64,000 nucleotides of DNA from a virus (IMGVR_UViG_3300009152_000030:110118-174117), one strand, 5' to 3'. Numbered from the stretch's first letter, positions 38,856 through 53,929 are shown. Notes: generated by a model from the letters alone, not told the origin. Made by a program: numbers and translations.

Positions 38856-39395
38856 TTAGATATTGTTCTTTCTACGAAGAAAGAGTAGTGTGCCAACTAC
38901 CGCAAAGATACCGAAAATGCTAGCAATAGCAGGAGCAGCGGAACAGCCTGAACCCTCTTTGCTTTTGGCGGCAGCATCGGCCGCTCCTGAGCCGCTGCCA
39001 TCAGTCTCGGGAAGAGTTGTATCGGTACCAGTATCAACACCTGAACCACTACCATCTACGGGAGTGACTTCACCTGAACCTGAACCACCAGCATCAGCTT
39101 CTCCAGATCCACAATCAGGATCAACGGCAGCTGAGCCCTCAGAACCTGAACCGGAACCTGAAGTAGCGGTATCGCAAGGAGCAGGAATTGCCTCTGGGAC
39201 ACAAGCAAGTAGCTCGGTGGCACAAGAGTCACAGGCTGAGCCTTCGGCACAAGGAGGACACTCTGCACTAGCAACAGCAGCACAGACTTCGCCGGTAGCG
39301 CAATCTGTAGTGGTAACGCACTCAGTAGCATATGCAGCTGAAGCTACAAGTAGGGTAGCAAGAAATGAAACTAGGGTAAACTTAATCTTATTCAT
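38856..39395 (-). CDS. Secreted Cys-rich protein with MYXO-CTERM-like sorting end
   Basis: The start chosen is the ATG at 39395, because GGAG lies 8 bases before it; the ATG at 39407 has no such site. The 179-residue product has a clear signal peptide (cleavage after AYA, residue 23) and a Cys-rich segment at about 24-70 with a C-V-T-T-T-D-C-A-T-G-E-V-C pattern as in myxobacterial surface proteins. A long Gly-Ser/Asp/Thr linker follows (about 75-145). The end is G-S-G-C (Cys 151), a hydrophobic helix (153-173) and RRK, the layout of MYXO-CTERM sorting signals. It is probably anchored at the cell surface. Its coding sequence is visibly more GC-rich than its neighbours, suggesting transfer from a host. 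Confidence 0.7.
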   Translation of the reverse strand: MNKIKFTLVSFLATLLVASAAYATECVTTTDCATGEVCAAVASAECPPCAEGSACDSCATELLACVPEAIPAPCDTATSGSGSGSEGSAAVDPDCGSGEADAGGSGSGEVTPVDGSGSGVDTGTDTTLPETDGSGSGAADAAAKSKEGSGCSAAPAIASIFGIFAVVGTLLFLRRKNNI

Positions 39396-39418
39396 TTTAA
39401 TCTCCATTTTATAATTGA

Positions 39419-48255: not shown

Positions 48256-48282
48256 TGTTTTCCTTAAAATATAGATAATCAG

Positions 48283-48355
48283 CTCTGGCTACAGGATTCG
48301 AACCTGTGACCTAGAAATTAACAGTTTCCCGCTTCTACCGCTGAGCTAAGCCAGA
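48283..48355 (-). tRNA. tRNA-Asn (GTT)
   Basis: The - strand sequence folds as a tRNA: a 7-base acceptor stem (TCTGGCT/AGCCAGA), a short D arm with GGTA, an anticodon stem GGAAA/TTTCT (one G-T pair) with loop CTGTTAA giving anticodon GTT, and a T arm ACAGG/CCTGT with loop TTCGAAT. The base after the acceptor stem is G, the discriminator expected for tRNA-Asn. CCA is not encoded. The D stem has only three good pairs. It may help translate AAC/AAU codons, which are common in the Asn-rich tail genes. Confidence 0.92.
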
Positions 48356-49946: not shown

Positions 49947-52364
49947 TTACTTTATTAAAGTAATTTTTCCTACTGGGCGAATCCGTAAGAAGTCATCTTT
50001 CTTAGTTGCTTTGTAGGAGAAAAATAATAGGGAACAATAGTCAAGTTTGTCTTTCAATTCTTCATATTGATCTGAGAACAATGTGACTTCTGATATAGAA
50101 GATAAATCTTCGATTGTCAATGTTGCCATTAATTTTCCTTTCGATTTACCACTTTTAATTTGCTGTTCTTTAATATGAGATACCGCAACGAGCAGATTGC
50201 CTTCGTTACTATTTGTTTCATCTATATCCTCTATTTGACTAATTAAAATGCCAGGAGGCGTCTTAGTGATATAGGACAGAGGATGGCGGCTAATAAAGAA
50301 CTTACAATATTCAGATTCCCATTTGACAATTTGAAGTGGGACTTTGTATCCCAGACTTTTCTTGATAGATTCTAGGTCAGGAAAGACAGGCTGTTCTGGA
50401 ACTTTGAGTACCAATGGCTTCTTAGGTCTTAGTTCAGAGTAAACCTTCTTACTGTCAGAATCTAGTTGGACTGTAATGACACCAGCTTTTACTTTGGTAG
50501 TCCAGTCATCGAGCAATGCAGGATAAGCATCTAGCTCTTTGTTACGCTCAAAAGCTTGAACTATTCTTGTTTGATAGTTTTCAACCTTTGTATAGTAATC
50601 AAAGATATCAGAAAGTTTCTCTACAAGCTTAACTCTGTCATATCCAAAACTATCAAAGGCACCAACCTTTGCAAGTATGCTAACAACGCCAGCATTAATC
50701 TTTGTTCGATTAATTCTAGTAAAGAAGTCAGCCATGCTTGTAAAGGACTTTCGGCCACGAGCCTTCAGTATAAGATCGCTAGCTTTGTTACCAATGCCAT
50801 TGATCATGCCAAGGCCAAATAGGATAGTGTTATCATCCAGCTTAGTAAAACCAATATCACTATTGTTAATGCTAGGTGGAAGAATATTGTATCCCATCTG
50901 CCGATACTCGTTGATATAACGAACCAGTTTCTCTGGCTTACCACTCCTAACAGTCATTAGCGTAAGCATAAAGTCTGTAGGATAGTAAGTTTTAAGATAT
51001 GCATTGAAATATGTAATGAAAGCATAAGCAAGAGCATGACTTTTATTAAATCCATACTCAGCAAATGCTGCAATGATATTCCATATACGAGTTGCTTCGC
51101 TAGTATTAATCTGATGAAGACGTCCACACCCGTCCACAAAAAGTGTGCGATACTCTTCCATTAGAATAGCGTCCTTTTTGCCCATTGCTTTTCTAATCTT
51201 ATCAGCTTCTTGTAAGGTTACACCTGCAAGAATTTGACATGCTGCCATAATTTGTTCTTGGTAAATAAGAACACCTCCGGTCTCAGCAAGTATACCATCA
51301 AGTAAGGGATGCAATTTATTTTGAGTCTCTTTAGTTGTCTTGTAATCGATATAGTCTTGGAGAAGACCAGAGTCACGAGGACCAGGACGATTAAGAGCTG
51401 AGAAAACTGCAAGATCCTGAACGCTCTGTGGCTTAAGATCAGCTACAAGCTTTAGGAGATAAGTCTCCTCCATCTGGAATAGGCCAGCAGTAAATCCTTT
51501 ATTGATTAATTCAAACACTGCAGGATCATCTACTGGAACTTCTTCCTCTAGCCATTTAAGGGACTTGCCAATACGCTTACAGGTAAGATCATTAATAGTA
51601 AGACAGTCAATTCTAAGGATATCGAACTTAATAAAGTTCATCTTCTCTAGAGTTGGACCTTCCCACTGCGTAAGATTAAACCAGTCTGCGCCTTCAGTCT
51701 TGCTTTTGCGAATTGAAATCATCTGGTCTACTGGACTTGTACCAATTAAAACTGCGCTAGCATGTACGCTGACCTCCTTGGCTTGACCATCGACTGGTCC
51801 GCAAAGACTAAAGATTTCCTCATTAGCTTCTACAACCTTCTTAATGTGCTCACTATTGTCTTCAATTAGCTCTTTGTAAGTTACGTATTTACCACGGTGA
51901 CTTTCAGGCAAACTATCAGCAAGACGTTCTGCGTCAGCAATAGTTCTGTATGATCCATCTGCGTTCTTAAGTAACTTAGTAAAAGCCTTAACACTAGTCT
52001 TAAGAGACCATGGCTTATAAGTTGAGACACGAAGAACACGGTCATGACCATATTTAGTTTGCAGTGCTTTGATTAGATCATCAGCACGGACATTACAAAA
52101 GTCAGTGTCAATGTCTGGACCTTCGCCGTCAACGTTATAAGTTATACGTGAATCAGAATTGTAATTATCAGACAACTTAAGCAAATATAGAATTGCACTA
52201 TTAGACTTATTAGACAATGATTTCTGCGAATCATAAGCATTGTTTATAAATACTAGAGTTTCAGGAGTAAGATACTTAATCTCAAACTCCAAATAGTCTT
52301 TATTAACACCTGGCAACCTTTCCTTGTTAAAGAAAGATCGTATGTTTTCTATAGTAATTGACAT
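49947..52364 (-). CDS. dnaE: DNA polymerase III alpha, C-terminal (catalytic) half
   Basis: The true start is the ATG at 52364, with GGAG seven bases ahead. The 805-residue protein has a novel N-terminal 80 residues, then PDIDTDF (83-89), the catalytic palm motif (Asp 84, Asp 86), IKFDILRIDCLTI with the third catalytic Asp, the finger region (LFQMEETYLLKLV, SALNRPGPRDSG, LIYQEQIM, FNKSHALAYA), tandem HhH and an OB fold near the end (LATLTIEDLSSISEVTLF). It therefore holds the whole catalytic triad. The PHP domain and first palm part are in the gene at 52649-53929. The two products must associate to form a working polymerase. Confidence 0.88.
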   Translation of the reverse strand: MSITIENIRSFFNKERLPGVNKDYLEFEIKYLTPETLVFINNAYDSQKSLSNKSNSAILYLLKLSDNYNSDSRITYNVDGEGPDIDTDFCNVRADDLIKALQTKYGHDRVLRVSTYKPWSLKTSVKAFTKLLKNADGSYRTIADAERLADSLPESHRGKYVTYKELIEDNSEHIKKVVEANEEIFSLCGPVDGQAKEVSVHASAVLIGTSPVDQMISIRKSKTEGADWFNLTQWEGPTLEKMNFIKFDILRIDCLTINDLTCKRIGKSLKWLEEEVPVDDPAVFELINKGFTAGLFQMEETYLLKLVADLKPQSVQDLAVFSALNRPGPRDSGLLQDYIDYKTTKETQNKLHPLLDGILAETGGVLIYQEQIMAACQILAGVTLQEADKIRKAMGKKDAILMEEYRTLFVDGCGRLHQINTSEATRIWNIIAAFAEYGFNKSHALAYAFITYFNAYLKTYYPTDFMLTLMTVRSGKPEKLVRYINEYRQMGYNILPPSINNSDIGFTKLDDNTILFGLGMINGIGNKASDLILKARGRKSFTSMADFFTRINRTKINAGVVSILAKVGAFDSFGYDRVKLVEKLSDIFDYYTKVENYQTRIVQAFERNKELDAYPALLDDWTTKVKAGVITVQLDSDSKKVYSELRPKKPLVLKVPEQPVFPDLESIKKSLGYKVPLQIVKWESEYCKFFISRHPLSYITKTPPGILISQIEDIDETNSNEGNLLVAVSHIKEQQIKSGKSKGKLMATLTIEDLSSISEVTLFSDQYEELKDKLDYCSLLFFSYKATKKDDFLRIRPVGKITLIK

Positions 52365-52365
52365 T

Positions 52366-52656
52366 CTAACTCCAGCATTGACGGGCAATAGATTTAAATA
52401 AGTGTAAAGTTTCTTTACGCTTATGATGTGCATTAGATACTTGGTTATTAACCATAATGTATCTAAAGAATAAAGCAAGTAATATTAAAAAAGGATGCTT
52501 AATAGCCCAGAAGTTCTTCTTGTTAAATATAGACTTAAGAATAAAAGACTCCTTTAGAGATTCTATGCTTTGAGTTTCTGTATTGTAAACAAATTCTTCT
52601 GCAATTGTGTTGCGATAAGGAACCTCTGGCATATCTATTTTTATATTTTTAAGCAT
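52366..52656 (-). CDS. 96-aa ORF between the two polymerase halves
   Basis: The ATG overlaps the stop of the N-terminal polymerase gene (ATGCTTAA), and the stop TAG lies two bases before the start of the C-terminal polymerase gene, with that gene's GGAG inside its last codons. Translation is therefore likely coupled across all three genes. The protein is basic, with one hydrophobic segment (about 52-68, KHPFLILLALFFRYIMV) and a His/Lys/Arg-rich tail (NAHHKRKETLHLFKSIARQC). No intein, HNH or LAGLIDADG motif is evident. It may be a linker subunit, the remnant of a mobile element, or non-functional. Confidence 0.5.
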   Translation of the reverse strand: MLKNIKIDMPEVPYRNTIAEEFVYNTETQSIESLKESFILKSIFNKKNFWAIKHPFLILLALFFRYIMVNNQVSNAHHKRKETLHLFKSIARQCWS

Positions 52657-53929
52657 TTAATTCCTTCATATCCTCTGAAAAGTCTAAAGATATTCTTACT
52701 CGACCAGGATTCAGGAAGCGCTCAAAGAGTAAGCCATGCTTAACAGGATCAAGATGCTTAGCAGTGATTCCAAGTGACCATGAGATCAAAGATCCGCCAC
52801 CAGAACCACGTGCTGGGCCAACGGGTATACCCATACCCTTAGCAAGACTAACATAGTCCTGAACGACAAGGAAATAAGAACTATAACGAGCCTCGTCAAT
52901 GACTTGGAACTCGTATTTAATTCTATCCTTATATGCCTTAGGAACATCCGCCCAGGTAGCTACGCCAAGTCTAGCTATAAGTCCAGCCTTAGCCTTCTTA
53001 AGCAACATTAAGCTTGTGCCTTCCGGAGTAAGACCTTCAAGCTGAAGATTGGGAGCTCTAGTGACTCTTTCAAAGTAGTCACCATCTACAAGATCTGCTA
53101 CATGCTGAGTATTAGTAATTGCTTCGTGTGGCAATTGCCAATCGTCGCATAAGCCCTTAGCAAATTCCGCATCATACATCCAAGCATTGTGGTCTTGGAC
53201 TTCATATGGCATTGTATCTGGAGTCTTATGCATACTCACACACATAACATAGCTACGTAGTTTATACTGATCTTGGTTCTGATGATGTGCATCTGCAGTA
53301 AGGACAAGGGGAATATTCTTGCGTTTACTTAGATCAATTAGATATTGATTATAGCCATATTGCTTTTCAACATTGTTATGCTGAAGCTCAAGGAAGAAGC
53401 TGTCGTCGCCGACTGCCTCTCTAACTTCATCACACCATCTATCAATCTTTGCATGTTCACCCCAGTGCCAGTACTTAAAGCACTGACTACTGATACAAGT
53501 ACTAGTAGCAATCAAGCCCTTAGCATGTTGCTTAAACATCTCTAAGTCAATGCGAGGATAACGATAAAAGCCATCCTCATATGAATACTTAGTAAGCTTC
53601 ATAAGATTCTTATAGCCTTCTTCATTCTTAGCAAGTAATAAGAAGTGGCCATTGTTAACTGCCTTCTCTGCAACGCCATTCTCTGGCATAAAATCAGACT
53701 TAGTCTTAGCATCATTAAATGCAAGATAAGTCTCATTGCCAATAATAGGCTTTACATTAGCAGCCCGGCAACCTTTTACAAACTCTGGAATGCCACCCAT
53801 ATATCCATGGTCGGTCAAAGCAACTGCATTCATCCCTCTAGACGCAACAATCTTGCCCATTTGATCAGCTGGCTGTAAGCCATCAAGCAATGAATAATAA
53901 CTATGTGCGTGAAGATGTACCATTCCCAT
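52649..53929 (-). CDS. dnaE: DNA polymerase III alpha, N-terminal (PHP) half
   Basis: The ATG at 53929 is chosen (GAGAG ahead; protein start MGMVHLHAHSYYSLLDG matches DnaE N-termini); the upstream in-frame TTG is less likely. The 426 residues hold the PHP domain with apparently intact metal ligands: HLHAHS (5-10), LTDHG, GNE, TADAHH. The first palm segment follows, with IPVGPARGSGGGSLISWSLG and GLLFERFLNPGRVRI. It then stops at LDFSEDMKELNA, exactly where bacterial enzymes have P-D-x-D-x-D-F. An active PHP domain could provide proofreading. It needs the 49947-52364 product for catalysis. Confidence 0.88.
   Translation of the reverse strand: MGMVHLHAHSYYSLLDGLQPADQMGKIVASRGMNAVALTDHGYMGGIPEFVKGCRAANVKPIIGNETYLAFNDAKTKSDFMPENGVAEKAVNNGHFLLLAKNEEGYKNLMKLTKYSYEDGFYRYPRIDLEMFKQHAKGLIATSTCISSQCFKYWHWGEHAKIDRWCDEVREAVGDDSFFLELQHNNVEKQYGYNQYLIDLSKRKNIPLVLTADAHHQNQDQYKLRSYVMCVSMHKTPDTMPYEVQDHNAWMYDAEFAKGLCDDWQLPHEAITNTQHVADLVDGDYFERVTRAPNLQLEGLTPEGTSLMLLKKAKAGLIARLGVATWADVPKAYKDRIKYEFQVIDEARYSSYFLVVQDYVSLAKGMGIPVGPARGSGGGSLISWSLGITAKHLDPVKHGLLFERFLNPGRVRISLDFSEDMKELNA

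What the first reader, a model, noticed from the sequence alone, without database searches (positions are those of the whole stretch)
49947..53929. DNA polymerase III alpha split just before its catalytic palm motif, with an ORF in the gap
Seen: one gene ends with LLFERFLNPGRVRI plus a short tail; the next starts with about 80 unfamiliar residues and then PDIDTDF. Bacterial enzymes have these two motifs adjacent in one chain. A 96-aa ORF fills the gap, with start and stop coupling on both sides. Known: split inteins divide dnaE in cyanobacteria and several genes in phages. No intein splicing motif is visible at either end here, so the halves probably assemble as separate proteins. The new ends could be docking segments. 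A fragmented polymerase with all catalytic Asp in one half would be an unusual phage replicase.
Basis: partly seen in the sequence, partly recalled or inferred. Interest (0 to 1): 0.85.

Follow-up and report, generated by a model that had tools for sequence, protein, structure and literature searches.

The report
Two-piece phage replication DNA polymerase
A phage copies its DNA with a bacterial-type replication polymerase that is made as two separate proteins, cut right at the catalytic site, and the same cut is conserved in many uncultured phages, so it is a real two-part enzyme and not a sequencing error or a self-splicing intein.

Summary
On the minus strand, dnaE (Pol III alpha) is two genes. 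The N half (426 aa) carries the PHP domain and the nucleotide-binding side of the palm. The C half (805 aa) carries an 82-aa extension, then PDIDTDF with all three catalytic Asp, fingers, HhH and a probable OB fold. A coupled 96-aa ORF lies between. It is not an artefact: six other IMG/VR contigs keep the same break. Tail, middle ORF and extension are under purifying selection. No intein is detectable at the break, although the same profile finds split inteins elsewhere in dnaE of distant relatives. The contig has no detectable PolA or PolB.

The extension and short N tail recur in about 26 distinct phage sequences; N and C halves are separate genes wherever both were seen. The gap content changes (nothing, other ORFs, reversed ORFs, up to 3.7 kb), so the 96-aa ORF is a clade-specific extra. 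Other phages (Cellulophaga phiST, Tenacibaculum Larrie) split dnaE at the same point independently (one-clade tree rejected, p=7e-5). The extension probably derives from a decayed copy of the palm segment that ends the N half, suggesting fission by partial duplication (inferred). Split Pol III alpha is known in other phages: new variant of a known kind.

The parts
52649..53929 (-). N half of DnaE, 426 aa: PHP domain plus GS half of the palm
   Evidence: Pfam PHP 9e-41 and DNA_pol3_alpha profile positions 5-109; PDB DnaE 5lew/7pu7 residues up to ~420
53378..53917 (-). PHP domain (residues 5-184); metal-ligand-like residues HxHxH, DH, E, H, C, D.H present where the M. tuberculosis DnaE1 chain has them
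   Evidence: function as proofreading exonuclease is inferred
52790..52819 (-). GS motif GPARGSGGGS of the palm, residues 371-380 of the N half
52652..52687 (-). N-half tail LDFSEDMKELNA, related in position and pattern to tails of distant split relatives (GR...xIF/DF..xM); possibly a decayed copy of the catalytic strand
   Evidence: 0/200 column shuffles reach the score, but the hhalign probability is only 3%
52366..52656 (-). 96-aa ORF in the gap, coupled to both neighbours; homologs 28-34% identical in the same place in close relatives, not found in distant ones
   Evidence: (omega 0.11-0.14 among the three relatives)
49947..52364 (-). C half of DnaE, 805 aa: catalytic Asp strand, fingers, HhH, probable C-terminal OB fold
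52119..52364 (-). 82-aa N-terminal extension of the C half; confidently predicted helical domain (block means of pLDDT 83-91 for residues 1-70) joined by a linker with pLDDT below 50
52098..52118 (-). PDIDTDF catalytic motif, D84 and D86 of the C half
   Evidence: invariant in alignment A8; aligned to the PDB DnaE motif
51621..51623 (-). third catalytic Asp, D248 of the C half
   Evidence: invariant column in alignments A7/A8
51126..51557 (-). fingers domain
   Evidence: PF17657 6.9e-43
50628..50894 (-). helix-hairpin-helix domain
   Evidence: PF14579 2.7e-23
49956..50204 (-). probable C-terminal OB fold
   Evidence: AF2 strands at residues 721-803, OB-fold structure matches at E about 0.01, weak PF01336

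Best explanation
This is a genuine two-polypeptide (bipartite) DnaE-type replicase. The chain is cut in the palm, just before the strand that carries the first two catalytic aspartates. The N protein brings the PHP domain and the GS/nucleotide-binding part of the palm; the C protein brings all three metal-binding Asp, the fingers and the DNA-binding parts. The two are made from one operon with overlapping or abutting ORFs (shown by gene geometry; translational coupling inferred) and assemble without a peptide bond (inferred from the absence of an intein and from the halves being separate genes in every relative where both were seen). The new ends, a short N-half tail and a folded 82-aa C-half domain, are conserved and most likely help to hold the halves together (inferred). 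The break probably arose by a partial duplication of dnaE in which the two copies decayed in complementary ways, leaving a decayed second copy of the palm segment as the extension (inferred, less certain than the rest). The 96-aa ORF is a selected but clade-specific gene that sits in the gap.
For: Same split in six other contigs with the same spacing. Purifying selection: bodies omega 0.016-0.043; tail, middle ORF and extension mostly 0.03-0.2 where dS is measurable. All three catalytic Asp intact and invariant. Only Pol III alpha hits in the 174-kb record, no PolA or PolB. No intein profile hit at the break, whereas the same profile hits split inteins in distant relatives L010 and L107 at another site (2.6e-7, 2.6e-4). 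The extension occurs in 35 contigs, 26 distinct sequences aligned; in the loci inspected N and C halves are separate, with gaps of about 0.25 to 4 kb. AF2 gives a compact helical extension and a DnaE fold for the body. The extension family matches the L069 extension at score 32.6 against a null maximum of 18.2, and the L069 extension matches the canonical palm segment with probability 94.
Against: No complex was modelled or assayed, so assembly and activity are inferred. The direct profile match of the extension to the canonical palm segment is weak (2/300 and 1/150 shuffles reach it), so the duplication origin rests on one intermediate, L069. Between the window clade and its nearest relatives the tail dS is saturated and the middle ORF is only about 30% identical, so its constraint is shown only among the three relatives. 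The record may be incomplete, so another polymerase elsewhere cannot be excluded. Most data are metagenomic.
Confidence: 0.85

Rival explanations
1. A highly diverged split intein joins the halves after translation.
For: Split inteins in dnaE are well known, and distant relatives of this phage carry one at the CFNKSH site of the same gene.
Against: No Hint or intein profile hit on any of the three ORFs; no Cys/Ser block A or terminal HN motif visible; the extension is predicted all-helical, not the beta-rich Hint fold.
Confidence: 0.03
2. A self-splicing intron or translational bypass joins the halves at the RNA or ribosome level.
For: The gap has constant length in close relatives (608 nt).
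Against: No Rfam intron in the junction; tail, middle ORF and extension evolve as protein-coding sequence; the gap varies from about 250 nt to about 4 kb in relatives.
Confidence: 0.02
3. The break is a pseudogene or assembly error.
For: Stop codons and frame changes lie inside a conserved gene.
Against: Independent assemblies agree and omega in the bodies is 0.016-0.043.
Confidence: 0.01
4. The halves are separate proteins, but fission followed insertion of a mobile gene such as a homing endonuclease, as in the Aeh1 nrdA 'genes in pieces', and not a partial duplication; the extension is an acquired docking domain. (This rivals only the origin part of the best explanation.)
For: Gap contents are variable and foreign-looking. 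The break sits at a conserved catalytic motif. Tails of another split lineage weakly match the Intein_splicing profile (0.0012, 0.0027).
Against: No recognisable endonuclease in the window gap; the extension family resembles the L069 extension, itself a decayed palm copy.
Confidence: 0.35

Closest known systems
Split dnaE of Cellulophaga phages phi13:1/phiST and Tenacibaculum phage Larrie
   Same: Two adjacent genes annotated 'DNA polymerase III alpha subunit', broken at the same point between FERFLN.GR and PDID.
   Different: Different tails (beta-rich-looking N tail that in related gut loci is weakly intein-like; KLV[DN]GTL before PDID), no 82-aa helical extension, separate origin (one clade of all split rows rejected, p=7e-5).
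Split minimal Pol III alpha of group 2.2 jumbo phages (Iyer et al. 2021, PMC7824862)
   Same: Nucleotide-binding half and Mg2+-binding half made as separate proteins.
   Different: Described as minimal, without the other domains of Pol III, from distantly located genes and accompanied by a family B polymerase. Here PHP, fingers and HhH are present, the genes are adjacent, and no PolB is found.
Split-intein dnaE (cyanobacteria) and 'fractured genes'
   Same: dnaE encoded in pieces, in phages with other genes between them.
   Different: Known break lies at another site and the product is joined by trans-splicing; no intein here.
Genes-in-pieces nrdA of phage Aeh1 (Friedrich et al. 2007; from general knowledge and citations seen)
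   Same: A phage replication-related gene broken into two functional proteins.
   Different: There a homing endonuclease gene caused the break; none is recognised here.

Membership tests
C-family DNA polymerase (DnaE) | PHP, palm with GS motif, two Asp in PDIDxDF and a third Asp, fingers, HhH | tested here: met
   features are spread over two chains
C-family DNA polymerase (DnaE) | polymerase activity of the assembled enzyme | not testable with these tools
   needs biochemistry
Split-intein (fractured) gene | IntN at the end of the first half and IntC at the start of the second | tested here: not met
   no hit at this break; positive control at the other break of distant relatives
Genes-in-pieces by homing endonuclease | homing endonuclease ORF in the gap | tested here: not met
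   96-aa ORF has no significant family match and a low-confidence fold
Gene with group I/II intron | intron RNA in the gap | tested here: not met
   protein-coding evolution
Split minimal Pol III alpha of jumbo phages (Iyer 2021) | minimal core, halves in distant genes, PolB present | tested here: not met
   larger domain set, adjacent genes, no PolB in the record

The most novel reading that the evidence does not exclude
The C half keeps a pseudo-palm: a decayed copy of the GS segment that occupies or guards the palm of the C protein until the N protein displaces it, so that polymerase activity is switched on only by assembly. A broad, uncultured phage family would then use a polymerase regulated by a self-derived decoy domain.
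Probability: 0.15. Interest if true: 0.85.

Novelty: new variant of a known kind. Interest (0 to 1): 0.6.

Why it matters
It indicates that a replicative polymerase can be cut through its active-site domain and still be maintained as the only polymerase found in these phages, that the same cut arose at least twice, and that a whole phage group carries it without splicing at that point. It gives natural split points and candidate docking ends for a C-family polymerase, and a case in which gene fission by partial duplication can be tested.

Tried and rejected
Rfam scan of the junction: only chance hits. Intein, Pfam, PHROG and NCBIfam profiles on the three ORFs: no intein and nothing significant for the 96-aa ORF; the weak flavivirus M/prM and AFWIR hits (E 0.05 or worse) look like chance matches to a hydrophobic stretch. 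AF2 of the 96-aa ORF failed to give a usable model (pLDDT 56.5), so it was not used for a fold search. tblastn of the extension against 50,697 phage records gave nothing at full length, and the genome-contig scan found no cellular relative (only one peptide pattern was scanned). Direct profile comparison of the extension with canonical palm segments was borderline; the link comes through L069. The first tree dropped rows through a bad filter and was redone; L069 was left out of the redone tree as a long branch.

Full report
What is there. The window is positions 110118-174117 of a 174,117-bp IMG/VR virus record. On the minus strand three ORFs follow each other: the N half of DnaE (53929..52649, 426 aa), a 96-aa ORF (52656..52366) and the C half of DnaE (52364..49947, 805 aa). 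The 96-aa ORF overlaps the end of the N half by 8 nt, and the C half starts 1 nt after the stop of the 96-aa ORF; AAGGAA and GGAG sequences precede the two internal starts. The N half holds the PHP domain and the first part of the Pol III alpha catalytic domain (profile positions 5-109); the C half picks up at position 101 with PDIDTDF and continues through fingers and helix-hairpin-helix, with a probable OB fold at its end. Against solved DnaE chains the two halves tile the chain with no missing core. All three metal-binding Asp (D84, D86, D248) are in the C half and are invariant in an alignment with distant phage DnaE.

It is not an artefact. Seven other IMG/VR contigs carry the same genes at 91-100% identity, and the six that reach the junction keep the same break and the same 608-nt spacing from FERF to PDID. 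Nei-Gojobori estimates give omega 0.016-0.043 for both bodies in every pair compared. Among L003, L004 and L005 the 96-aa ORF has omega 0.11-0.14, the extension 0.07-0.11 and the tail 0.03-0.2. Between the window and L003 or L005 the extension is 0.22-0.27, while dS is saturated for the tail and the 96-aa ORF. So all pieces look like selected proteins, which also argues against an intron. No PolA or PolB Pfam match exists in the record, only the two Pol III alpha halves.

No intein at this break. Neither half nor the 96-aa ORF hits an intein profile. The method is sensitive enough: in distant relatives L010 and L107 the same dnaE gene is broken a second time at the CFNKSH site, and there the intein profile is found at 2.6e-7 and 2.6e-4. 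Rfam finds no intron.

The split is shared by a large group. A search with the extension alone found 35 contigs, 26 distinct sequences aligned. In the loci inspected the C half starts with the same 77-97 residue domain and the N half ends shortly after FERFLN.GR with a related tail. The halves are separate genes wherever both were seen, with gaps from about 250 nt (L147, no ORF) to 3.7 kb (L144) or about 4 kb (L149). In L140, a nearer relative, the gap holds a different 138-aa ORF with the same kind of start/stop overlap; in L010, L106, L107, L151 and L162 a reversed ORF sits there. The 96-aa ORF was found only in the window clade. It is therefore a selected local gene and not a general third subunit. 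In L106 the genes after dnaE (phosphoesterase, Cas4-like nuclease; named by eye from sequence) are in the same order as in the window, which fits common descent of the split; the tree of the C-half body does not group the two sets but does not reject the grouping (p-AU 0.19).

The same cut arose more than once. Cellulophaga phages phi13:1 and phiST, Tenacibaculum phage Larrie and several gut and environmental contigs split dnaE at the same point with different ends. Bacteroides phage BS-TP1 has a Dda-like helicase gene in the gap. A tree that forces all split rows into one clade is rejected (p-AU 7e-5), and starred branches force at least two changes. The N tails of two members of that wider set (L049, L120) match the Intein_splicing profile weakly, at the same profile region (0.0012 and 0.0027, below the curated cut-off); that these are remains of an intein is a suggestion only.

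How it probably works and arose. AF2 of the C half (pLDDT 77.9) gives a compact helical extension (block means 83-91 for residues 1-70), a poorly ordered linker (residues 73-83) and a DnaE body. The extension thus looks like a separate folded domain on a tether, as expected of a docking domain, but its contacts were not tested. In contig L069 the C-half extension looks like a decayed copy of the canonical palm segment that ends the N half (hhalign probability 94; hmmsearch 16.4 bits against a shuffle maximum of 15.3 in 2000). The window-type extension family matches the L069 extension well above column-shuffled controls (32.6 against a maximum of 18.2), but matches the canonical segment itself only at the margin (1/150 and 2/300 shuffles as high). 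The N-half tail aligns in register with the catalytic strand it replaced, without its catalytic Asp pair (0/200 shuffles, but a low probability of 3%). Together this suggests a partial duplication with complementary loss. It is an inference with one key intermediate.

What is known. Iyer et al. 2021 (PMC7824862) described a split minimal Pol III alpha in group 2.2 jumbo phages, with the same functional division but no other Pol III domains, distant genes and an accompanying PolB. PHROGs already holds families whose profiles look like such N and C halves (phrog_13169 and phrog_12219). Surveys of bacterial DnaE read here mention cyanobacterial split inteins but no phage split of this kind; the 2011 survey of viral replicases was not held. 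No cultured phage with the 82-aa extension was found. The finding is a new variant of a known kind.

Noticed in passing
L147, L149, L153, L154, L159, L160, L163, L164, L166 N-half C-termini: One subgroup of split relatives ends the N half in [ILMK]PF*, resembling the SSB C-terminal tip (recalled, not tested).
   Followed up: no
L144, L145, L157 (L106), L158 (L107), L162 N-half C-termini; related form in L141 (L010): Another subgroup ends in a C-x-H-x-H motif (CSHSH, CGHSH, CQHSH, CNHKH), a possible metal-binding tail; in L141/L010 it lies before the end.
   Followed up: no
L010:5300-7750 and records G008, G010, G011, G013: A second break of the C half near the CFNKSH site; in L010 and L107 an intein profile is hit there and in L010 other genes lie between the pieces. 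In the G records only two separate match pieces were seen.
   Followed up: partly
L026, L028, L032 upstream of the GS motif: Sequence resembling the end of an intein lies just before or near the GS motif of dnaE.
   Followed up: no
L010:3436-3936, L106:4567-4938, L107:4455-4982 (all reversed): Reversed ORFs of 120-175 aa in the dnaE gap that look related to each other (..QIDVVTLLG..), of unknown function.
   Followed up: no
window 48282-48355: A single tRNA-Asn (gtt) gene a few genes downstream of dnaE.
   Followed up: no
window 38856-39407: ORF with a signal-like N-terminus, GSGSGS repeats and a C-terminal hydrophobic stretch followed by basic residues, like a surface-anchored protein.
   Followed up: no
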